From a virus: DNA of 25,304 bases. Positions 4,591 to 24,559 of this stretch are shown here, in pieces. Numbering within the stretch: the first letter of the stretch is position 1; the number at the start of each line of letters is the position of its first letter. A program made the translations under genes and the position numbers. The stretch spans positions 1 to 25,304 of the IMG/VR virus record IMGVR_UViG_3300020411_004002, one strand, 5' to 3'. The notes beneath the pieces are model-generated. The model did no database searches. It was not told where the DNA came from and worked only from the letters and a program-made list of their open reading frames with translations.

Positions 4591-6552
4591 ATGTCTACTT
4601 TCGGCTGGGCTTATATTCGCTGTAGCGACACCGGCTCCTCGGAAGATATCCAAGGAAGCGCGGAACAGATTCTTTTTGTCACTGCTGACGATACTGCATC
4701 TGGTTCGAGCAATTTTGTCTTTTTAACCGCTTCTAACACTGTGGTCTTAAGCGGCTCTTTAAAGGTTGAAGGTCCAGTTACTGCTAGTGTTTTTGTGAGT
4801 GATTTATCGCTCACGGGTTCAACTTTTTTTGGTAATGACAACGCCGATGTTCATGTAAGAACCGGTAGTTTAATTATAAGTGGACCCTCTACTGCATATG
4901 CGACCCCCACACTATACGCAAGCTCCAGCTATGTTGGTATCAATACGATTACTCCTGACTATAGTTTGGCCGTCACAGGAACATTAGGAGTTTCAGGAAA
5001 CTCATCTCTTCATGGCAACGTTGCTTTAGGAAATGCTGCGACAGATGTTACCACAGTGACTTCACAACTTACTGCATCTGGAGGCTTATTAGTTAGTGCG
5101 CCGTTAACAGCTTCCGCCGCAGCGCATTTTGATAGCACGCTTACTGCTCGCGGGACTGTGACTTTAGGCGATGCAGCAGCAGACGTCACAACCGCAAACT
5201 CACAAGTCACAGCTTCTGCCGGGCTTAGTGTCACAGGAGATAAGTTCAACTCAACAGTTAATGCAAGCCTATTAGCCAATACGACCCTTGGCGAGAACAA
5301 CAGCGCTGCAATTACAATTGTTGGCGCCCATGTTAAATTAAGCAATGTTACGGCCAGCACAGACAATACTGTTCTTATACTCAACAGTGAAAATAAAATC
5401 GCTCATGATGAAATTGATTCTAAAGTTTGGGCTGGAAAACTTGTAGATTACACAGGTACCCCATCGGCAAATCAGCTTACTTTATGGTCTGATGAAGACA
5501 CCCTTAAAGCAGATAGTGATCTTGCTTGGAACGGCACTGATACATTGACTATCGGTGGTACCTTAACATCAAGTGTAGGAGTGTCCACCGGTGCAGTTAT
5601 AGCGCGAACATTATCAGCTAGTGCATTAACTGAGCTAAGTGGAACAGTGCACATGGGAACTGCATTCGCGACTAGCTTATCCGCGAGTACCTTTATTTCA
5701 GCATCCGCATTTGTTGGAGATGGAACAACATTAACCGGTATTCCTGACACATTTGGCTCGCCAAGCGCTAATCAAGTTGCAATTTGGCATAACGGTGATG
5801 CGATAAAAGGACACAATGCACTCCAAATGAATACCTCTACCGGGATATTAGCGGTCAATAGCCAAGTGTCTGCTTCCCAATTGGTTCTCGGAGGACAATT
5901 ACAAGCGTCAGGTAACATTAGTATTACACAACCTACTACTACTAATGGAGGCAACAGCTATCGATTGTTCATAGGCTCAGAAACCGAAGGTGGACTGATG
6001 TCTTACCTGCGGAATGATTCAGGTCAACTGCAAACAGTGCTTCAAGGTTTTAACACCACACTGCGTTTAGAAACCGGCGCAGGTAAAAACACAGAAGTAG
6101 TATTAGGCTCTAACGCCAATCAAGAGCAGTTTCAAGTTCGAAATCAATCCGACAGCGTGATGTTCCATGTTGATGTCACAGGAAGCGTATCCGCCAGTAA
6201 TCGAGTACAAGCCGGTAGCTTTACTGGATTAAACCTTTTAAATCGTTCTTACTTGCCTGTACGAACAACTCCCTATACAGCTTCTGTTAATACAGGAGGG
6301 TATATCTTGGGCGTCTCTCGTTCTGCTGGCGGTGATTTCAATATGGAAGTGAGATTACCAGAGGCTGACGACGTAAATTCAGGAGCAGTTTTTGTAATTA
6401 AAGATGAAGTATTAAACAGAACAACGACAGCAATTTATGTATCGGCCTCAGCTGGAGATACTATTGATGGCGCCGCATCATTCACTGTTACAGGTTCAAT
6501 GGCTTCCATTAACCTATATAGTGATGGGGATAGCAAGTGGTTTATCTTCTAA
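4591..6552 (+). CDS. Large fibre-type virion protein, 653 aa
   Basis: The start ATG 4591 follows GGAG at 4577-4580 and the previous stop by 2 nt. Nearly the whole protein is Ser/Thr/Ala/Gly-rich short beta repeats (xVSGNSSLxGNVxLGxAAxDVTT style) typical of trimeric phage fibres. One 23-residue unit occurs twice (5020-5088 and 5158-5226). FVGDGTTLTGI (around residue 375) is a motif often seen at fibre knots. The last 70 residues form a beta domain with FVIKDEVLNRTTTAI and DTIDG, ending LYSDGDSKWFIF, shared with other proteins in this window. The likely place is the virion surface, head fibre or tail fibre, with host-binding potential. Which structure it belongs to cannot be told from sequence. 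Confidence 0.85.
   Translation: MSTFGWAYIRCSDTGSSEDIQGSAEQILFVTADDTASGSSNFVFLTASNTVVLSGSLKVEGPVTASVFVSDLSLTGSTFFGNDNADVHVRTGSLIISGPSTAYATPTLYASSSYVGINTITPDYSLAVTGTLGVSGNSSLHGNVALGNAATDVTTVTSQLTASGGLLVSAPLTASAAAHFDSTLTARGTVTLGDAAADVTTANSQVTASAGLSVTGDKFNSTVNASLLANTTLGENNSAAITIVGAHVKLSNVTASTDNTVLILNSENKIAHDEIDSKVWAGKLVDYTGTPSANQLTLWSDEDTLKADSDLAWNGTDTLTIGGTLTSSVGVSTGAVIARTLSASALTELSGTVHMGTAFATSLSASTFISASAFVGDGTTLTGIPDTFGSPSANQVAIWHNGDAIKGHNALQMNTSTGILAVNSQVSASQLVLGGQLQASGNISITQPTTTNGGNSYRLFIGSETEGGLMSYLRNDSGQLQTVLQGFNTTLRLETGAGKNTEVVLGSNANQEQFQVRNQSDSVMFHVDVTGSVSASNRVQAGSFTGLNLLNRSYLPVRTTPYTASVNTGGYILGVSRSAGGDFNMEVRLPEADDVNSGAVFVIKDEVLNRTTTAIYVSASAGDTIDGAASFTVTGSMASINLYSDGDSKWFIF
5020..5088 (+). 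repeat. Protein-level repeat, copy 1 (fibre protein)
   Basis: It encodes VALGNAATDVTT followed by SQLTASGGL. The second copy at 5158-5226 encodes VTLGDAAADVTT and SQVTASAGL. The copies match at the amino-acid level with diverged codons, so this is an old internal duplication of a beta-repeat unit. Confidence 0.7.
5158..5226 (+). repeat. Protein-level repeat, copy 2 (fibre protein)
   Basis: Second copy of the 23-residue unit at 5020-5088. The spacing between copies is 138 nt, which is twice the unit length and suggests a repeating structural register. Confidence 0.7.
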
Positions 6553-17038: not shown

Positions 17039-20029
17039 ATGTCAATTAAAAGCTTTAAGTTTGTTTCACCAGGGGTTTTTATTAATGAGATTGACAACTC
17101 ATTTATCCCAGCTTCATCTGAAGAAATCGGGCCCGTAGTTATCGGAAGATCACAACGAGGCTTGGCGATGCAGCCAGTAAAAGTGGGGTCTTACTCTGAT
17201 TTTGTAGAAATGTTTGGAGATACAGTTCCTGGCGGTGGCGCGGGTAATGATGTTTATCGAGACGGAAATCTTCAGTCCCCGATGTACGGCACTTACGCCG
17301 CTAAAGCATTTTTAAATGCGAATGTTGCTCCTCTCACATACATTCGCCTTTTAGGACAGCAGTCTAACAATGCAACGGAAGCTGGCTATGCCGGCTGGCA
17401 AACCACAAGCAATATTAATGCAACTGCAGCCTCGAATGGTGGCGCTTACGGACTTTGGGTTTGGCCAAGTTCTAGCGGAAATCCTGCTGCTGACGGAGGA
17501 GTAGATCTTGGCACTGGACAATTAGCGGCTATTTGGTATTTAGATACAGCAGCAACTATTGCTCTAAGCGGCGCCCTTCTCGGTGGTTTCATATCAAGTT
17601 CTTACCCAAACCGCGACGGCTCGGACACGATGCAGACGGACGGTAACACAGCTGGTATCGGAAAAGTTATCGGAACAGACGCTAGCAATTATTTTACAGT
17701 AACAATTTCTAGTTCTTATGGGGGAGAAGAGAAGACCAAGTTCGGATTTGATGATTCTTCGGATATGTTCATCCGTCAGAGATTCAACACGAATCCTCAA
17801 TTGGCTTCTTCTCGTGGAACATTTTTCGCCAGTGATGCTTATAAGCAATATTGGCTTGGAGAGACATTTGAGCAAGATCTTCGAGATGGTACAGATGCAT
17901 TAGTCGGAAATGGTACTTCTAAGATTGGAGTAGCTCTTCATGGAGTTATTTTACCAATCGCATTAATAAGCGATCTCACCAAATCCCCAGCAAAAATGAA
18001 TAACCAGCCTAGCCGAGAAGCAGAGACCGGCTGGTTCGTTGGACAGGATCTTGGTGTTCCTGAAGACTTCTATCCTCAAAATTCTCAAAAGCTCTTTAAG
18101 CTTAAAGGTCGCGGACATGGAGAATGGCTACAAAAGAATGCTAAAGTTTCTATTGCAAACGTACGTGCATCAACGTCTCCAAGTAGTGACTATGGAACGT
18201 TTTCAGTTATTATACGAGCTTTAAGTGATACAGATAGCAATATTTCAGTTTATGAAAGATTTGACAACCTTAATCTAAATCCAGCTTCTCCTGACTTCAT
18301 TGGTCGTAGAATTGGTACTAAGTTTACACAATGGGATGATACTAGTCGCCGACTTAAAACTTACGGAGATTATCCAAATAATTCTAAATTTGTATACGTA
18401 GAGTTAAATTCAAAGGTGCAAGATGGACAAGCAAACGCCACATATCTTCCTTTTGGCTACTTCGGTCCACCTCGCTTTACAGGGCTAACGAATATTAGTG
18501 GTGGAATTGACGCAAGCAACATTCCTGATGGTGCGTTAGCTGGTCGATATGTTTATTGGGCAGCAGGCGCCTTCCCGGCAACACCCTCCAGCGCATTCAG
18601 CGGCGGACAGTTAGAAGCAGTGTTGTCGTGTTCGTACTCGGATCCCGGCTCTCGTGTTGGTTGCGGAATCACAGGATCCCTTGCATGGCCACGTACAAGA
18701 TTGCGCTTGTCGGCGTCAGACGGAGGATTATCCGATCCCACAAACGCCTATTTTGGATTCCAAACAACGCGCACACGTACTTCTACTATCAATGATGCTA
18801 GCGTTGCTGATGTTCAGCGTCTCTGGTTTGCTGGTCAAACAGACGCAGCATCTACTGGTGTTGACACATATTCATATGTTTTCTCCCTGGATGATATTGT
18901 CAAAGATGCTGGTAGCGGAGTATATTACTATGAGTCTGGTTCGCGCCAATCTGAAAAATCAGTCACATCTGCATCGTACGATGATTTGTTGTCCGCTGGA
19001 TATAGAAACTTTACCGCACCCTTCTGGGGTGGCGCTGATGGCTTTGATATTAAGCTGCCAGATCCTCTGTATAATGGTAGCATGGACTCTACATCCACCA
19101 ACCTTAATAGTTCGCCATATTACACTTGGCGCCGCGCAATGGACACCGTAGCAGATCCAGAGTCTGTTGACATGAACTTGATGGTTGCTCCGGGTCTTAC
19201 AGTTGATAATCTAACAAATCACATGATTGATGTGTGTAGTGAACGCGCCGATGCATTAGCGTTAATTGATTTGGCTAACGTTTACATCCCCCCACATGAG
19301 CAATATAAATCGTCTGTGGTCAATCGTATTGGTACAACCCCCACTGATGCTTCCAACGCATTATTAAATAGAAGAATTGATTCAAGTTATGGTGCAACCT
19401 TCTACCCATGGGTGCAAACACAAGATGCCGCAACTGGTATTCTGTTGTGGGTGCCACCTTCTGTCGCAATGGCCGGTGTTCTGGCTAGCTCTCAAGCAGC
19501 TACTGATGTGTGGTTTGCTCCGGCTGGTTTTAATCGCGGAGGTCTCTCCGATGGTGCCGCCGGAATTCCAGTCACAGCTGTGACCGAAAGGCTCACATCC
19601 AAAGATCGCGACACACTATACGAAGCGAGAATTAATCCCATTGCTTCGTTCCCTAACACGGGCATTGTGGTATTTGGACAAAAAACTCTTCAGGCAGATG
19701 CCTCGGCACTGGACAGAATCAATGTTCGCCGCCTTGTTATCTATCTTAAGAAGCAGATTTCTATCCTTTCTACGGAAGTATTGTTTGAGCAAAATGTTCA
19801 AGCAACGTGGAATCGATTTAAATCTCTCATTGAGCCTCTTTTGGCCAATGTAAAAGTTAATTTTGGTATTACAGAGTATAAATTGATTCTTGATGAGACC
19901 ACCACCACGGACGATCTCATCGATCAAAATATTCTTTATGCAAAGATTATGGTGAAACCTGCACGCGCGATTGAGTACATTGCTATTGACTTTGTTATTA
20001 GTTCGACAGGTGCATCCTTTGATGATTAA
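17039..20029 (+). CDS. 18: Tail sheath protein (gp18)
   Basis: The product is 996 aa, against 659 in T4. It polymerises around the tail tube and contracts at infection. The N-terminus is classic: FKFVSPGVFINEIDNSFIPA, then GPVVIGRSQRGLAMQPVKVG and SYSDFVEMFG. The C-terminal contractile domain from about residue 848 has TERLTSKDRDTLYEARINPI, GIVVFGQKTLQ, ALDRINVRRLVIYLKKQI and DDLIDQNILYAKIMV. The middle, residues about 120-650, is Ser/Gly/Tyr-rich and much longer than in T4, so it probably carries extra surface domains. GAGAGG at 17025-17030 is the ribosome binding site. A hairpin follows the stop. Confidence 0.95.
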   Translation: MSIKSFKFVSPGVFINEIDNSFIPASSEEIGPVVIGRSQRGLAMQPVKVGSYSDFVEMFGDTVPGGGAGNDVYRDGNLQSPMYGTYAAKAFLNANVAPLTYIRLLGQQSNNATEAGYAGWQTTSNINATAASNGGAYGLWVWPSSSGNPAADGGVDLGTGQLAAIWYLDTAATIALSGALLGGFISSSYPNRDGSDTMQTDGNTAGIGKVIGTDASNYFTVTISSSYGGEEKTKFGFDDSSDMFIRQRFNTNPQLASSRGTFFASDAYKQYWLGETFEQDLRDGTDALVGNGTSKIGVALHGVILPIALISDLTKSPAKMNNQPSREAETGWFVGQDLGVPEDFYPQNSQKLFKLKGRGHGEWLQKNAKVSIANVRASTSPSSDYGTFSVIIRALSDTDSNISVYERFDNLNLNPASPDFIGRRIGTKFTQWDDTSRRLKTYGDYPNNSKFVYVELNSKVQDGQANATYLPFGYFGPPRFTGLTNISGGIDASNIPDGALAGRYVYWAAGAFPATPSSAFSGGQLEAVLSCSYSDPGSRVGCGITGSLAWPRTRLRLSASDGGLSDPTNAYFGFQTTRTRTSTINDASVADVQRLWFAGQTDAASTGVDTYSYVFSLDDIVKDAGSGVYYYESGSRQSEKSVTSASYDDLLSAGYRNFTAPFWGGADGFDIKLPDPLYNGSMDSTSTNLNSSPYYTWRRAMDTVADPESVDMNLMVAPGLTVDNLTNHMIDVCSERADALALIDLANVYIPPHEQYKSSVVNRIGTTPTDASNALLNRRIDSSYGATFYPWVQTQDAATGILLWVPPSVAMAGVLASSQAATDVWFAPAGFNRGGLSDGAAGIPVTAVTERLTSKDRDTLYEARINPIASFPNTGIVVFGQKTLQADASALDRINVRRLVIYLKKQISILSTEVLFEQNVQATWNRFKSLIEPLLANVKVNFGITEYKLILDETTTTDDLIDQNILYAKIMVKPARAIEYIAIDFVISSTGASFDD

Positions 20030-20101: not shown

Positions 20102-20689
20102 ATGGCATTTTGGGCAGAAAACTTTGGTGAGAATTCAGCCATTAACGATCCAAAGAGAAAATTTAGATTTACGGTTGAGTTCCAAGGAGTGCAATCTTCA
20201 CAAGGTGGCGCCTTGTTGTGGTACGCAAAGACTGTTAATAAGCCGTCTTTCCAGATCGCTGAAGCTGAGCACAAATACTTGAACCATACGTTCTATTATC
20301 CTGGATCCGTTACATGGCAAGATATTAGTTTGACCCTTGTTGATCCTGTGAGCCCAGATATGGCTGCAACTCTGTCAGATATTGTGGTATTATCAGGATA
20401 TTCACCTCCTACTACTGCAAACTCTCTAGGTTCTATGTCTAAAGCTAAATCCGCTGGAGCGCTCGGTTCCGTAATTATTACTCAGATTGACTCCGAAGGC
20501 GAGCCTTTGGAAACTTGGACTCTGTGGAATGCTTGGATTAAAGAAGTAAAATATGGCGATTTGGAGTATGGTGGTGATGACTTGACTGAGATGACTGTTA
20601 CCCTTAAGTATGATTGGGCTCGCGTTGAAACTACAAACCCATCTATTGCTGTTGGCGGTGGCGGTGGTCAAGAATTCTTTACCGTTTAA
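20102..20689 (+). CDS. 19: Tail tube protein (gp19)
   Basis: The product is 195 aa (T4 gp19, 163 aa). Hexameric rings of it form the tube inside the sheath. The N-terminus has NDPKRKFRFTVEFQGV, then WYAKTVNKPSFQIAEAEHKY and LNHTFYYPGSVTWQDISLTL. This is the conserved tube-fold order with the inner beta strands. Later, ETWTLWNAWIKEVKYGDLEY and DDLTEMTVTLKYDWARVE form the closing strands. A Gly-rich tail (GGGGGQEFFTV) ends it. AGGAG (20089-20093) precedes ATG 20102. Its order after the sheath gene is typical. Confidence 0.94.
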   Translation: MAFWAENFGENSAINDPKRKFRFTVEFQGVQSSQGGALLWYAKTVNKPSFQIAEAEHKYLNHTFYYPGSVTWQDISLTLVDPVSPDMAATLSDIVVLSGYSPPTTANSLGSMSKAKSAGALGSVIITQIDSEGEPLETWTLWNAWIKEVKYGDLEYGGDDLTEMTVTLKYDWARVETTNPSIAVGGGGGQEFFTV

Positions 20690-20718: not shown

Positions 20719-21588
20719 TTGTCACGAAATAAAGATCGTTTGGGCATGGGACAGTCACGGCCGGATGCGGCTACCGACGCTCCCCCCACGGTGTTGCAAA
20801 ACGATAATCCTGGGTTCGCATTTGTGGTGCCAACTGAGTTTGTAGCGCTACCGTCAGAAGGGAGATATTACCCACCGCAGCATCCGCTTCACGGAGAAAC
20901 AACCATTGAGATTAGACAGATGACAGCCAAAGAAGAGGATATGTTAACGTCTAAAACTTTACTGAAAAAAGGAGTTGCTCTAGACAGAGTGATACAAAGC
21001 TTGATTGTTGAACGAACAATTAATGCTGAATCTCTTTTGGTAGGAGATCGCAATGCCATAATTATTGCTATGCGCGTAAGTGGATATGGGAGGGAATATC
21101 AAACTAGTATTACTTGCCCTCATTGTGGAGCAACCCAGCAAAATGCGTATGATTTAAATGACGCCACTGTGTACACTGGTGAAGTTCCACTTGATATGGA
21201 GATACAAGATAATCAAAATGGCACTTTTGATGTGGTTTTGCCACGTTCTGGGGCGACCGTAACAATGCGCCTCCTAACAGGACATGACGAAAACCGCATC
21301 AGCAAGTCATCTAATAATCGCAAGAAAGCCAAACAAGAACTTTATGAACAAGCAGTTACAACACAGCTATCTCATTTGGTATTGGCAGTAAATGGAGACG
21401 ACAGTGTTAGTGCCAGACGTTATTTGGTAGAAAATATTCCTTCTTTAGATTCCCGCTATTTGCGTAACGCATATCGGGTAGTTGCGCCAAACGTAGAATT
21501 GAATTATGATTTTCAATGCGACGAATGTGGACATGAGCAACTACTGGAGGTGCCGCTTTCAGCGAACTTTTTTTGGCCTGACAGCTGA
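20719..21588 (+). CDS. 26: gp26-like baseplate hub / tail assembly protein with zinc ribbon
   Basis: The product is 289 aa from TTG 20719, chosen because AGAGGTG (20708-20714) lies just upstream. ATG 20746 lacks a binding site. Residues 35-125 hold the family core: FVVPTEFVALPSEGRYYPPQ, EIRQMTAKEEDMLTS, LLKKGVALDRVIQSLI, GDRNAIIIAMRVSGYG. Two C-x-x-C pairs, CPHC (133-136) and CDEC (267-270), would make a zinc ribbon closed across a large insert. T4 gp26 (208 aa) is a hub-region protein. The position between tube and tape measure genes is that of lambda G-type tail assembly chaperones. The end of the gene overlaps the gp51-like frame, with a seven-T run at 21568-21574, so a frameshifted longer form of about 368 aa is possible. 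Confidence 0.8.
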   Translation: MSRNKDRLGMGQSRPDAATDAPPTVLQNDNPGFAFVVPTEFVALPSEGRYYPPQHPLHGETTIEIRQMTAKEEDMLTSKTLLKKGVALDRVIQSLIVERTINAESLLVGDRNAIIIAMRVSGYGREYQTSITCPHCGATQQNAYDLNDATVYTGEVPLDMEIQDNQNGTFDVVLPRSGATVTMRLLTGHDENRISKSSNNRKKAKQELYEQAVTTQLSHLVLAVNGDDSVSARRYLVENIPSLDSRYLRNAYRVVAPNVELNYDFQCDECGHEQLLEVPLSANFFWPDS

Positions 21589-21826
21589 ATATATAGAAAA
21601 TGTGTATGAACAATTCTTTTTCTTAAAATATTCTGGAGGGTGGTCTTTCTCGGAAGCATACAATCTGCCCATAGGGCTTCGAAAATGGTTTGTAGAAAGA
21701 TTAGTTAAACAGATTGAAATGGAAAACGAGGCTGTAAACCAAGCATCTAGTGGTAAAGGGCGCTCTCAAACTTTAAGTGTCCATAACCAGCCGGCTGTTC
21801 CTTCTCACTTAAAGGACAAACTCTAA
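21506..21826 (+). CDS. gp51-like tail assembly protein, probably lacking its own start
   Basis: The frame runs from ATG 21506 to TAA 21824-21826, 106 codons. The first 20 residues are only the other-frame reading of the upstream zinc-ribbon codons. Protein-like sequence begins at about TFFGLTAEYIENVYEQFFFL and continues with GGWSFSEAYNLPIGLRKWFV and ERLVKQIE. This helix-turn pattern resembles the short gp51-type proteins that follow gp26 in T4-like phages. T4 gp51 is described as a catalyst of hub assembly. ATG 21506, ATG 21533 and GTG 21602 all lack Shine-Dalgarno sequences. A +1 or -2 shift on the T run at 21568-21574 would produce it as a C-terminal extension of the gp26-like protein. The stop overlaps a terminator. 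Confidence 0.65.
   Translation: MIFNATNVDMSNYWRCRFQRTFFGLTAEYIENVYEQFFFLKYSGGWSFSEAYNLPIGLRKWFVERLVKQIEMENEAVNQASSGKGRSQTLSVHNQPAVPSHLKDKL
21546..21574 (+). promoter_or_regulatory. Candidate programmed frameshift site with internal SD
   Basis: GGAGGTG (21546-21552), a perfect anti-SD complement, lies inside the gp26-like gene with no start codon at a usable distance in the downstream frame. It is 15 nt before TTTTTTT (21568-21574), read as TTT TTT T in the upstream frame. A +1 or -2 shift continues into the gp51-like frame. A -1 shift stops after two codons (TTG GCC TGA at 21573-21581). Confidence 0.5.
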
Positions 21827-21883: not shown

Positions 21884-24559
21884 ATGGCCGAAAGATTAGA
21901 CGACATAGAAGCCAAATTAGCAGCTTTAAAAAAAATTGAATATCAACTAGAGACGCATAAGAAGCTTGGCAAAGAGATGCAAAAGGAAGCTGAGCGTCTG
22001 GTGGACGCTTATGGTTCTCTAGAAGATGCTGCAAGAGAGTTGGCCATCAGAAAAGAGGCTATCCTTAAAGCGATTGTTAAATCTGCTGAAGCAGAAGAAA
22101 AAAGTTTACTTGCCATAAAAGAAAATGTTGCAAAATTAGAGAAAATGCAAGAGCTTTTAGAGAGTGGCAAAAAAACAATACAAGGGCGCGTCGAGGCTTT
22201 AGAAAACGAATTAGAATTAGAAAAAGCCAGACTAGAAGCCAAAATAGCAGCGGGAGAACTGACGGGCGAAGACCTCAAAAAAGCCAAAGAGGCCATACGG
22301 ATACTACAACGTAGACTTAATGCTTCAAAAAACTTGCTTAAAGCAACCGGCGAATTTGTTCTAAAGCTGGGAACCGCAGAGGGCCGCATGGAAGCTCTTA
22401 ATGACCTCGGAGATAGCCTGGCACAGAAGCTAGGTAAAGCTGTTGATTCGATGGCTAGTAAGCTTCAGAGCTTCGTCATCGGTGGTATTAAAGACCTAGT
22501 TTTCCAATTTAATACAGCGTATAAAGCTTTCGAGCGCACTACGGGTGGTAATGTTGAATTTACCGAAAGCATGATGCAAAGTTTCGATACTCTAAAACAA
22601 TACGGCGTAAGTATGGACGAAGCAAAGGAAGCTCATTTGGCTCTTTATAGAACAGTAACTGATTTTACGTTAGCCGAAGAAGGACAGAGACAGCAACTTG
22701 GAGATACTATTAGTACCCTGCAAGAATACGGAATGTCAGTGGAGGATCTTGCGCAAGGTGTACAAAATTCAATGAAGCTTTTTGGACAATCTATGGAGGA
22801 TTCCGGTGAGATAGCCCAAGATTTATTAACACTATCACAAGAGTTAGGGGTCATACCGGCAGATATGGCTGCTGCATATGCCTCAATGGGTAGCAGCTTA
22901 GCAAAATTTGGAAACGATGGAGTTCAAACTTTTAAAGAACTAGCTCGTGTGCAGAAATTGACTGGCATGGAGATGGAAAAAGTTTTACGTATTACGGAAA
23001 AGTTTGATACTTTTGAAGGCGCTGCAGAGGCTGCTGGTTCTCTTAACGCTGCGTTGGGACAGAATGCTGTTAATGCAATGGACCTGCTGATGGAGACTGA
23101 TCCAGTAGCCCGCTTTGGAATGATCCGAGATTCTATCCTAGACACTGGACTTTCGTTTGAGAGCATGTCTTATTTCCAGAAACAATATTTTGCACAAGCT
23201 GCTGGCTTAGATAATGTAAATGATCTAGCGCTAATGCTCTCGGGTCGCATGGACTTAATGGCTGGGGCCACTCAAATGTCAACTGAAGAACTCATCGCAC
23301 AGGCAGAAGCAGCTAAAGATTTGCAAAATTTTCAAGAACAAATGGCAGCTATTTTAGCAGAAAACGCGCCGCTTTTTGAATCAATAGCTCGCTCTGCAGT
23401 AGAGTTTATTAGAAAGCTGTCGGAGATGGAACACTTGCTTCCTAAAATTATTGGACTTCTGGTCCTATTAAAATCTGCCAGTATACTCATGCAGTTCTCA
23501 ATGCAGGCTGCTGCAGCGGGATCAAGTAGTCTGGCTTGGAAAACGGGACTTTTAGCGTTGGCACTCACCGCGCTAGCGTTTTTGCTTTTCCAGCAACAAT
23601 TTGCCTCCAACTTTTTAGAAGGGCTTCTTAAGTTTTCTGCAGCCATAGGAACTCTTGCACTATCCGCGCGTCTAGCTAGTCCTGTGATTAGGCAATTAGG
23701 CGCCTCAGCGGGAGCCGCATCAGTTGGGTTGATACCCTTTGGTGCGGGTATTGCCCTTATCGTTGGCAGTGTAGCAGCGCTGTATGCAGGTATGGGGCAG
23801 CTTATAACTGCTTTTGCTGGATTGTTTGAAGTTGCTCCCGTCGAAACAATGTTTAAATGGGTGGGCGCCCTGGTGTTGTTAGGGCCTGCAGGTGTCTTTG
23901 CTGGTGTTGGATTAGCTGCTATGGGCGTGGGCTTGACGTTGCTCGGCGTTGGGTTGTTTCTTGTAAGTGCTCGAAAGTTAGAGTCTATTGGGCAAATTAT
24001 GATGGGTCTCGGAAAGGCTGCTGAATTCGGAGCAGATTGGAATTCTATTTCGGGAGGTATAAGGTCTATAGCTAGCGCAGCAGATGACATGAGCGCTAGT
24101 TCATTAGATAGTCTGATAGAATTAGTAGAAATGTCGACACAATTTAATGCGTTTGCAAATTCTGTCAACTCTACGGCAACCGCATTTGAACGCCTAGGGT
24201 CAGCGATGAATTCTATTTCGGGCGCCCAAGCACAGCAAGTTTCACAAGCAATGCGGGATTCAGTGGAGGCTATTAACGATGTACCAGTGGTTAAAACCAT
24301 GATCATTTCAGCCGGCTTCGGCGCCATGTCCCTAGCAGCTGCCGCATTAGGACCTCTGGTTCGTGCACTTGGTGGAGCTAAACAACAGCGAGTCAGTCCG
24401 TTTGAGCCTGCAGGTTCCCAAGTGAGTAATTCGTCTGAAAGTGGGCCGGTCGAATTGTACGTACAATTAGATGCAGCACAAACACAGTCCTTCTTAGAGG
24501 GACAAATAACACAGATCCAAGGACGGCGAGATCGCTCTGCAGTTTTTGGAGATGCTTAA
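21884..24559 (+). CDS. 29: Tail tape measure protein (gp29-like)
   Basis: The product is 891 aa (T4 gp29, 590 aa). It sets tail length and passes through the tube during infection. Residues 1-165 are continuous coiled coil, rich in Glu, Lys and Ala (AERLDDIEAKLAALKKIEYQ, ELELEKARLEAKIAAG). Residues about 180-510 are helical (ITEKFDTFEGAAEAAGSLNA). Residues about 520-700 are strongly hydrophobic with several membrane-like helices (IIGLLVLLKSASILMQF, LALALTALAFLLF, VGLAAMGVGLTLLGVGLFLV), the usual membrane-active zone of tape measures. The C-terminus is flexible. AAGAAGGAAA (21864-21873) precedes ATG 21884. A 331-codon minus-strand frame inside it is a shadow. Confidence 0.88.
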   Translation: MAERLDDIEAKLAALKKIEYQLETHKKLGKEMQKEAERLVDAYGSLEDAARELAIRKEAILKAIVKSAEAEEKSLLAIKENVAKLEKMQELLESGKKTIQGRVEALENELELEKARLEAKIAAGELTGEDLKKAKEAIRILQRRLNASKNLLKATGEFVLKLGTAEGRMEALNDLGDSLAQKLGKAVDSMASKLQSFVIGGIKDLVFQFNTAYKAFERTTGGNVEFTESMMQSFDTLKQYGVSMDEAKEAHLALYRTVTDFTLAEEGQRQQLGDTISTLQEYGMSVEDLAQGVQNSMKLFGQSMEDSGEIAQDLLTLSQELGVIPADMAAAYASMGSSLAKFGNDGVQTFKELARVQKLTGMEMEKVLRITEKFDTFEGAAEAAGSLNAALGQNAVNAMDLLMETDPVARFGMIRDSILDTGLSFESMSYFQKQYFAQAAGLDNVNDLALMLSGRMDLMAGATQMSTEELIAQAEAAKDLQNFQEQMAAILAENAPLFESIARSAVEFIRKLSEMEHLLPKIIGLLVLLKSASILMQFSMQAAAAGSSSLAWKTGLLALALTALAFLLFQQQFASNFLEGLLKFSAAIGTLALSARLASPVIRQLGASAGAASVGLIPFGAGIALIVGSVAALYAGMGQLITAFAGLFEVAPVETMFKWVGALVLLGPAGVFAGVGLAAMGVGLTLLGVGLFLVSARKLESIGQIMMGLGKAAEFGADWNSISGGIRSIASAADDMSASSLDSLIELVEMSTQFNAFANSVNSTATAFERLGSAMNSISGAQAQQVSQAMRDSVEAINDVPVVKTMIISAGFGAMSLAAAALGPLVRALGGAKQQRVSPFEPAGSQVSNSSESGPVELYVQLDAAQTQSFLEGQITQIQGRRDRSAVFGDA

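What the first reader, a model, noticed from the sequence alone, without database searches (positions are those of the whole stretch)
21506..21826. Candidate programmed +1/-2 frameshift fusing gp26-like and gp51-like tail assembly proteins
The gp26-like gene ends just after a run of seven T at 21568-21574. The gp51-like frame begins to look like a protein exactly there, and no start codon for it has a Shine-Dalgarno. A +1 or -2 shift in the T run joins the frames into about 368 aa, while -1 hits TGA after two codons. A perfect GGAGGTG at 21546-21552, useless for initiation in that frame, could stimulate slippage as in dnaX. Genes between tube and tape measure in lambda, and in Mu (reported -2), make chaperones this way. 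T4 is not known to. This would extend the G/GT scheme to T4-type gp26/gp51.
Basis: partly seen in the sequence, partly recalled or inferred. Interest (0 to 1): 0.78.

Follow-up and report, generated by a model that had tools for sequence, protein, structure and literature searches.

The report
Frameshifted tail-chaperone gene in T4-like phages
A run of Ts near the end of a phage tail-assembly gene very probably makes some ribosomes slip one base forward and add a second domain, giving short and long versions of one chaperone; a similar arrangement was already reported for T4-like phages, but the forward direction and a conserved RNA element around the slip site may be new.

Summary
In detail: T7 at 21568-21574; -1 meets TGA after two codons; +1 (or -2) joins the gp26-like ORF to the next frame (368 aa). 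Comparative evidence for programmed frameshifting is strong. 259 of 262 distinct junctions keep the second domain in +1; in 29 of 251 its frame has no ATG/GTG/TTG from the upstream stop to 66 nt past the slip. Slip variants (TTT TTT TGG 200, TTT CTT TGG 28, TTC TTT TGG 17, TTT CTA 5) allow +1; the TTC and CTA forms fit -2 and RNA-polymerase slippage poorly. In the window's clade, silent sites of GGAGGT-N-CCGC-UNNNN-GCGG-AC-UUUU are mostly fixed where predicted to pair and free elsewhere, so an RNA element is probably selected; there is no covariation. The product looks like a tail assembly chaperone; its fold match to HK97's is weak. Homologous jumbo-phage genes use -1 at U UUU UUC (27 of 30 loci). 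Prior art: Vladimirov et al. 2022 on T4-like chaperones (title and citing passages seen). A +1 variant of a known kind; no experiment.

The parts
20102..20689 (+). tail tube protein (T4 gp19-like), upstream neighbour
   Evidence: phrog_4542 E 5.5e-26; PF06841 E 6.7e-7
20719..21588 (+). gp26-like protein, short chaperone form (TAC-N), 289 aa, TTG start, stop TGA 21586-21588
   Evidence: PF12322 E 1.7e-15, 57.7 bits vs cut-off 24.5; phrog_150 E 9.3e-19; AlphaFold model pLDDT 90.2, best Foldseek PDB match HK97 tail assembly chaperone 2ob9 prob 0.97, E 0.067
21546..21551 (+). GGAGGT: SD-like sequence and 5' arm of the predicted outer stem (pairs with 21566-21571)
   Evidence: GAG in 90 of 90 Glu codons among 96 non-redundant relatives; RNAalifold pairs columns 36-41 with 56-61
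21553..21565 (+). inner hairpin CCGC-loop-GCGG (here CCGC TTTCA GCGA, one pair lost in the window)
   Evidence: CCG 93 of 96 and GCG 88 of 89 codons fixed while loop codons vary; 98.0% of cells paired, slid controls 24-48%, no covariation
21568..21576 (+). slip site TTT TTT TGG; P-site codon TTT 21571-21573 proposed to slip +1 to 21572-21574
   Evidence: TTT TTT TGG in 200 of 262 distinct junctions
21575..21826 (+). C-terminal domain read in the +1 frame (TAC-C; long form 368 aa in all)
   Evidence: 84 open codons from the slip on (row L002, identical to the window); conserved FGLTxEY...GGxxFSExYNxPIxLR from the first codon on; PF20546 DUF6760 19.8 bits, below its 27-bit cut-off
21884..24559 (+). 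tape measure protein, downstream neighbour
   Evidence: phrog_167 E 3.9e-7

Best explanation
This is the tail assembly chaperone (TAC) gene of a T4-like phage, decoded by programmed +1 ribosomal frameshifting. Most ribosomes stop at TGA 21588 and make the 289-aa short form. A minority pause with tRNA-Phe on UUU (21571-21573) in the P site and UGG in the A site; the tRNA slips one base forward onto UUU (21572-21574), decoding resumes at GGC and a helical C-terminal domain is added (368 aa). In this clade an upstream RNA element (GGAGG plus a hairpin whose 3' arm runs into the slip site) probably tunes the shift. Short and long forms then help to load the tape measure protein and the tube, as gpG and gpGT do in lambda. 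Shown: frames, conservation, lack of start codons in part of the relatives, silent-site constraint. Inferred: that ribosomes shift, its direction and efficiency, the role of the element, chaperone function.
For: Same +1 relation in 155 loci plus the window, in 333 of 336 loci with a detectable second domain and 259 of 262 distinct junctions. Of 251 distinct junctions with an in-frame [TC]TT-TGG/TAC slip motif, 29 have no ATG/GTG/TTG in the second frame from its upstream stop to +66 nt; L138 has none in the whole frame. The conserved protein sequence of the second frame begins at the slip site (F and L invariant, G nearly so, in 63 sequences). Silent-site constraint in the window's clade: of 213 scored codon columns 10 exceed 0.3 above expectation, 7 of them among the last 13 codons and 3 at the gene start; GAG, CCG, GCG, GAC and the second TTT are fixed or nearly so, while the Val, Leu and Thr/Ser codons between are free. 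The second frame is closed by a stop within 15 nt upstream of the slip in 26 of 124 junctions of the clade, so overlapping coding does not explain the upstream constraint. Gene order tube - this gene - tape measure. HK97 TAC is the best Foldseek PDB match and second.
Against: No experiment. The window's own RNA fold is not more stable than shuffles (z -0.42) and the hairpin shows no covariation. The fold match to HK97 TAC is weak (E 0.067; Z 5.4, below the 8 that the tool advises). The C-terminal domain could not be linked to the T4 gp51 tail by profile comparison (prob 0.8%, 0.4%). In 15 of 124 distinct junctions of the clade an ATG/GTG near -11 has an SD, so those could initiate the second frame separately; most relatives have some in-frame start, with or without SD. 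2 of 262 distinct junctions (L340, L345) carry the second domain as a separate ATG-started gene. In the Mel-JY01 and immuto clades 5 of 8 and 4 of 8 high silent-site columns lie elsewhere in the gene, so the upstream signal is specific to the window's clade.
Confidence: 0.88

Rival explanations
1. -2 frameshifting at the T run (as in phage Mu), which would give one extra Phe.
For: T7 allows it by pairing in the 200 junctions with TTT TTT TGG; -2 is documented for Mu (PMC5009743 passage).
Against: In TTC TTT TGG (17 junctions) -2 puts tRNA-Phe on UCU (middle mismatch); in TTT CTA (5 junctions) and ATG TTT TGG (L392) -2 re-pairing is also poor, while +1 gives UUU or UUC (pairing argued by hand). 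TTT CTT TGG does not decide.
Confidence: 0.06
2. The downstream domain is an independent gene started by its own codon (for instance through GGAGG and a looped-out hairpin, or the ATG 22 nt after the slip).
For: Many relatives have an in-frame ATG at +22; 15 of 124 clade junctions have an ATG or GTG near -11 with GGAGG upstream; L340 and L345 do have a separate ATG gene.
Against: 29 of 251 junctions have no ATG/GTG/TTG up to +66, in all three clades; in the window's clade no ATG at +22 has an SD by the rule; a separate gene would not need the slip site or the sequence around it to be kept. Starts at rarer codons (CTG, ATA, ATT) were not tested.
Confidence: 0.05
3. Transcriptional slippage at the T run makes a mixed mRNA pool.
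For: Seven Ts in the commonest form.
Against: TTTCTTTGG, TTCTTTTGG and TTTCTATGG relatives have runs of only 3-4 T and keep the same frame relation.
Confidence: 0.02
4. Sequencing or assembly error in the homopolymer; the gene is really a single frame.
For: Homopolymers are error-prone (general knowledge).
Against: Same relation in 333 of 336 loci and in forms without a long homopolymer; records deposited as complete genomes (Mel-JY01, immuto, SP-15, LIS04, RM378) agree when read by eye.
Confidence: 0.01

Closest known systems
Tail assembly chaperones of T4-like phages (Vladimirov, Gautam, Davidson 2022, Virology 566:9-15)
   Same: Same idea for T4-like phages: short and long chaperone forms, with frameshifting in some groups and two genes in others (PRFect passage; that the T4 genes are 26 and 51 is recalled, and agrees).
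   Different: Paper not held; only title and citing passages seen, abstract recalled. I cannot tell whether it covers +1 shifts or this clade. The conserved GGAGG/hairpin element is not mentioned in the passages I read.
Lambda gpG/gpGT frameshift
   Different: Lambda shifts -1; here +1. Sequence relation not shown; only a weak fold match to HK97's chaperone.
-1 GTTTTT site of the tail chaperone in Vandenendeviridae/Andersonviridae (PMC12846349, section 24 read)
   Same: Poly-T slip site at the end of TAC-N, the extension annotated as a separate gene or intergenic.
   Different: Opposite direction. The jumbo relatives found here (27 of 30 loci with in-frame U UUU UUC) resemble this in direction.
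prfB (RF2) +1 frameshift
   Same: P-site slip from CUU or UUU onto UUU with an SD-like sequence upstream; part of the immuto clade has CUU U.
   Different: A-site codon is UGG, not a stop; GGAGG is 20 nt from the P-site codon rather than 3 (prfB features recalled).

Membership tests
Frameshifted tail assembly chaperone (G/GT type) | Located between tail tube and tape measure genes | tested here: met
   phrog_4542 tube upstream, phrog_167 tape measure downstream
Frameshifted tail assembly chaperone (G/GT type) | Overlapping downstream frame with no dependable start of its own, reachable by a shift at a conserved slippery site | tested here: met
   259 of 262 distinct junctions in +1; 29 of 251 without any ATG/GTG/TTG to +66; exceptions L340, L345
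Frameshifted tail assembly chaperone (G/GT type) | TAC-N fold | tested here: inconclusive
   HK97 2ob9 chains are ranks 1 and 2 in Foldseek PDB (prob 0.97 and 0.89, E 0.067 and 0.18; rank 3 prob 0.02); VIA-align ranks 2ob9 second (Z 5.4, 85 aligned, 5.3 A) after 3fgx (Z 6.8)
Frameshifted tail assembly chaperone (G/GT type) | Both products made in a fixed ratio, bind tape measure protein, absent from virion | not testable with these tools
   needs protein experiments
T4 gp26/gp51 family (PF12322) | Match above the curated cut-off | tested here: met
   57.7 bits vs 24.5; T4 gp26 and gp51 match the whole length of the same model
T4 gp51 C-terminal extension | Homology to the +1-frame domain | tested here: inconclusive
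   hhalign prob 0.8% and 0.4%; similar pattern by eye only
-1 frameshift (X XXY YYZ) | Extension in the -1 frame | tested here: not met
   -1 reaches TGA after two codons in the window; the jumbo relatives do have it in -1
prfB-like SD-stimulated +1 shift | SD about 3 nt upstream of the P-site codon | tested here: not met
   20 nt in the window; required spacing recalled
DUF6760 (PF20546) | Match above the curated cut-off | tested here: not met
   19.8 bits vs 27, 18.5 bits

The most novel reading that the evidence does not exclude
A dedicated recoding element of a new type: GGAGG pairs with the anti-SD of the elongating ribosome while the intervening CCGC/GCGG hairpin is looped out, shortening the 20-nt spacing to about 7 and setting the +1 rate; alternatively the same RNA switches between hairpin and SD pairing. 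Related phage lineages solved the same chaperone-ratio problem with opposite shift directions at the homologous Phe-Phe codons.
Probability: 0.3. Interest if true: 0.65.

Novelty: new variant of a known kind. Interest (0 to 1): 0.45.

Why it matters
It indicates that the two-form tail chaperone logic of lambda is kept, by forward slippage, in a large and diverse set of T4-like phages found in metagenomes, and that homologous genes in jumbo phages use backward slippage at the same place. That makes the direction of a programmed shift an evolvable trait that can be followed in one gene. The silent-site pattern gives a compact, testable RNA element. Practically, the long form is missing or mis-started in the annotation of several isolate genomes (LIS04, SP-15, GXN1, immuto).

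Tried and rejected
Single-sequence folding of the window junction gave no unusual stability (z -0.42). A DNA-level search of the phage collection found nothing; plasmids nothing for two protein queries. A link to the T4 gp51 tail was sought and not found. My first reading of LR756511 (L161) as a separate gene with its own ATG (notebook) was wrong: one search shows GGT TTT TTC and an open -1 frame. PF20546 was searched only in the window record and 14 control genomes (0 controls); PF12322 also in 392 genomes of the phylum of an Erysipelotrichaceae MAG (4 of 392); a link to injection systems was not pursued. PDB sequence searches gave nothing for the single protein and one chance-level hit for the profile. 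The last viral-contig scan was lost on a pattern that I wrote with one N too few; the corrected pattern was run on the window only. The VIA list names no other clear family.

Rows dropped before counts: 343 of 350 loci reached the junction analysis and 336 gave a hit to the second-domain profile; the 7 without a hit were L347 (contig ends early) and the RM378 (twice), PA5oct, Atu_ph07, BRock and RaK2 loci, of which the named phages were read by eye. The profile was seeded from the window clade, Mel-JY01, immuto and LR756508. 8 of the 259 distinct +1 junctions lacked the motif used and were left out of its 251. keep only the best 80 loci each, so distant forms are under-sampled. One search used 96 of 136, 45 of 57 and 64 of 86 sequences after removing near-duplicates. 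A1 holds 62 of the 64 sequences chosen. A5 holds 62 of the 63 listed (L121 left out, the window in place of its twin L082), A6 63 of 81. Searches examined 30 of 39 loci.

Literature: searches (open-access library only; listings seen, not the papers) listed nothing that I recognised as a +1 shift in T4-like chaperones; this is not proof that none is in print. Of the papers cited, PMC12846349 was seen as passages plus section 24; PMC5009743, PMC10274946, PMC3004832, PMC9603447, PMC12859696, PMC13222765 and PMC11131426 as passages; Vladimirov et al. not at all beyond its title.

Full report
What is there. The window is a 25.3-kb IMG/VR virus record. Between a tail tube gene (20102-20689) and a tape measure gene (21884-24559) lies a gp26-like ORF (20719-21588; PF12322 57.7 bits, phrog_150) that ends in ...GCG AAC TTT TTT TGG CCT GAC AGC TGA. 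The next protein-like sequence, FFGLTAEYIENVYEQFFFLKYSGGWSFSEAYNLPIGLRKWF..., is in the +1 frame and begins at the T run.

Is it more than chance. Relatives of either part were fetched from viral contigs (capped at the best 80 each): 155 loci plus the window, all with the same +1 relation, 111 distinct junctions. Four further scans used distant named phages as queries. Of 350 loci then held, 343 could be analysed at the junction and 336 matched a profile of the second domain: 333 in +1, 3 in the other frame, 7 without a hit. After removing duplicates there are 262 distinct junctions: TTT TTT TGG 200, TTT CTT TGG 28, TTC TTT TGG 17, CTT TTT TGG 3, other +1 forms 11, other frame 3. The 11 are TTT CTA TGG or TTT CTA TTC (5), TTT TTT TAC or TTT CTT TAC (3), and the SP-15, LIS04 and GXN1 forms (3). 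Of the three in the other frame, one (LR756511, L161) is a -1 type with T TTT TTC and two (L340, L345) have a stop and then a separate ATG gene.

No start codon. Of 251 distinct junctions with an in-frame [TC]TT-TGG/TAC motif, 29 have no ATG, GTG or TTG in the second frame between its upstream stop and 66 nt past the slip; they fall in all three clades (10 of 124, 10 of 52, 9 of 75). L138 has none at all in the frame. Against this, most relatives have some in-frame start, and 15 of 124 in the window's clade have an ATG or GTG near -11 with GGAGG at SD distance.

Direction. The variants let the P-site tRNA slip forward onto UUU or UUC: UUU-U, CUU-U, UUU-C (in LIS04 only at the first of its two Phe codons). 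A -2 slip needs re-pairing on UCU in the TTC forms and on non-Phe codons in the TTT CTA and ATG TTT TGG forms (L392), so +1 is preferred; for T7 alone, and for TTT CTT TGG, -2 is not excluded. Forms with runs of three or four T argue against slippage by RNA polymerase. This pairing argument was made by hand.

RNA element. In 96 non-redundant members of the window's clade the silent positions of the last codons show a pattern: GAG 90 of 90, CCG 93 of 96, GCG 88 of 89, GAC 79 of 84, second TTT 96 of 96 (first TTT 84 of 96), whereas the Val, Leu and Thr/Ser codons between them vary freely. Of 213 scored codon columns of the whole gene 10 pass 0.3 above expectation; 7 are in the last 13 codons and 3 at the gene start. 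RNAalifold on 62 sequences pairs GGAGGU with ACUUUU and CCGC with GCGG around a five-base loop: the fixed silent positions are paired ones or the slip codon, the free ones lie in bulge and loop, and the two that vary between C and U (Asp, first Phe) face G and stay paired. There is no covariation, and the shuffle control is uninformative because the columns hardly vary; partners slid by 1-3 columns pair in 24-48% of cells against 98.0%. So the constraint is shown, the hairpin is a candidate. Downstream of the slip, overlapping coding can explain the constraint. The Mel-JY01 and immuto clades lack the upstream element: there the high columns at the gene end are the slip codons, CCT and (immuto) GAC, with 5 of 8 and 4 of 8 high columns scattered elsewhere.

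What it makes. The first protein's model (61 sequences, pLDDT 90.2, pTM 0.85) finds the two HK97 tail assembly chaperone chains of 2ob9 first in the PDB (prob 0.97 and 0.89, E 0.067 and 0.18); the other listed hits have prob 0.08 or less. A second look gives 3fgx (uncharacterised, Z 6.8) and 2ob9 (Z 5.4) ahead of the rest, both on about residues 26-132. These are weak values, but with gene order and frame arrangement they point to a TAC. The second domain is predicted as helix-loop-helix with moderate confidence (pLDDT 71.2).

Wider family. Twelve distant phage records were read at the same place; by eye LR756508, Mel-JY01, immuto, LIS04, RM378, SP-15, GXN1 and BRock have the second domain in +1, and RaK2, PA5oct, Atu_ph07 and LR756511 in -1. 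In the jumbo set (39 loci; 30 examined) 27 of 30 have in-frame U UUU UUC near the end of the gene, 7 of these 27 without ATG/GTG/TTG in the -1 frame up to +66; the -1 frame is open for 70-86 codons in those loci, counting up to 12 before the gene's stop. The first proteins of the two groups are homologous (hhalign prob 99.4, E 3.4e-21), aligned up to Phe-Phe. T4 gp26 and gp51 each match the whole PF12322 model, gp51 with about 48 residues more: T4 appears to have the short and long forms as two genes. I could not show by profile that this tail is the same domain.

What is known. PMC5009743 (passages) describes the lambda scheme as widely conserved except in T4. Vladimirov et al. 2022 (not held; title and citing passages; abstract recalled) identified T4-like TAC genes, with frameshifting in some groups and two genes in others. 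PMC12846349 (section 24 read) describes a -1 GTTTTT site in Vandenendeviridae. So the idea of the finding is not new; a +1 form with its conserved element did not appear in the open-access listings I obtained.

Verdict. A real programmed +1 frameshift with high probability, in a tail assembly chaperone gene of T4-like phages; a new variant of a known kind.

Noticed in passing
window 20719-20721: The TTG start codon of the gp26-like gene is conserved: TTG in at least 87 of the 96 non-redundant clade members at the first alignment column (the local alignment may hide ATG starts), suggesting deliberately weak initiation.
   Followed up: no
window 4824-4832: A second TTTTTTTGG lies inside the 653-aa ORF 4591-6552; two in the window is within chance (0.88 expected).
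   Followed up: no
L159, L160, L163, L164: In deposited genomes (immuto, LIS04, SP-15, GXN1) the C-terminal domain is unannotated or annotated as a short ORF from an internal start.
   Followed up: partly
L340 and L345: Two relatives carry the second domain as a separate ATG-started gene after a stop, a natural contrast to the shift.
   Followed up: partly
L398:1251-1970: An Erysipelotrichaceae MAG contig carries a relative with TTT TTT CGT and a +1 frame that runs on as the second domain does (by eye), perhaps a prophage or phage contig.
   Followed up: partly
window 21596-21751: Sub-threshold similarity of the second domain to DUF6760 (18.5-19.8 bits, cut-off 27), a possible link to bacterial contractile injection systems (recalled).
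   Followed up: partly
window 17039-20029: Tail sheath of 996 aa; its best family matches cover about residues 683-994, leaving the N-terminal two thirds unmatched.
   Followed up: no
window 23332-24327, minus strand: A 331-codon open frame runs antisense inside the tape measure gene; probably composition.
   Followed up: no
L002 and L082: IMGVR_UViG_3300030333_006336 (67,669 bases) encodes both proteins at 100% identity to the window and would give more context of the same or a near-identical virus.
   Followed up: no
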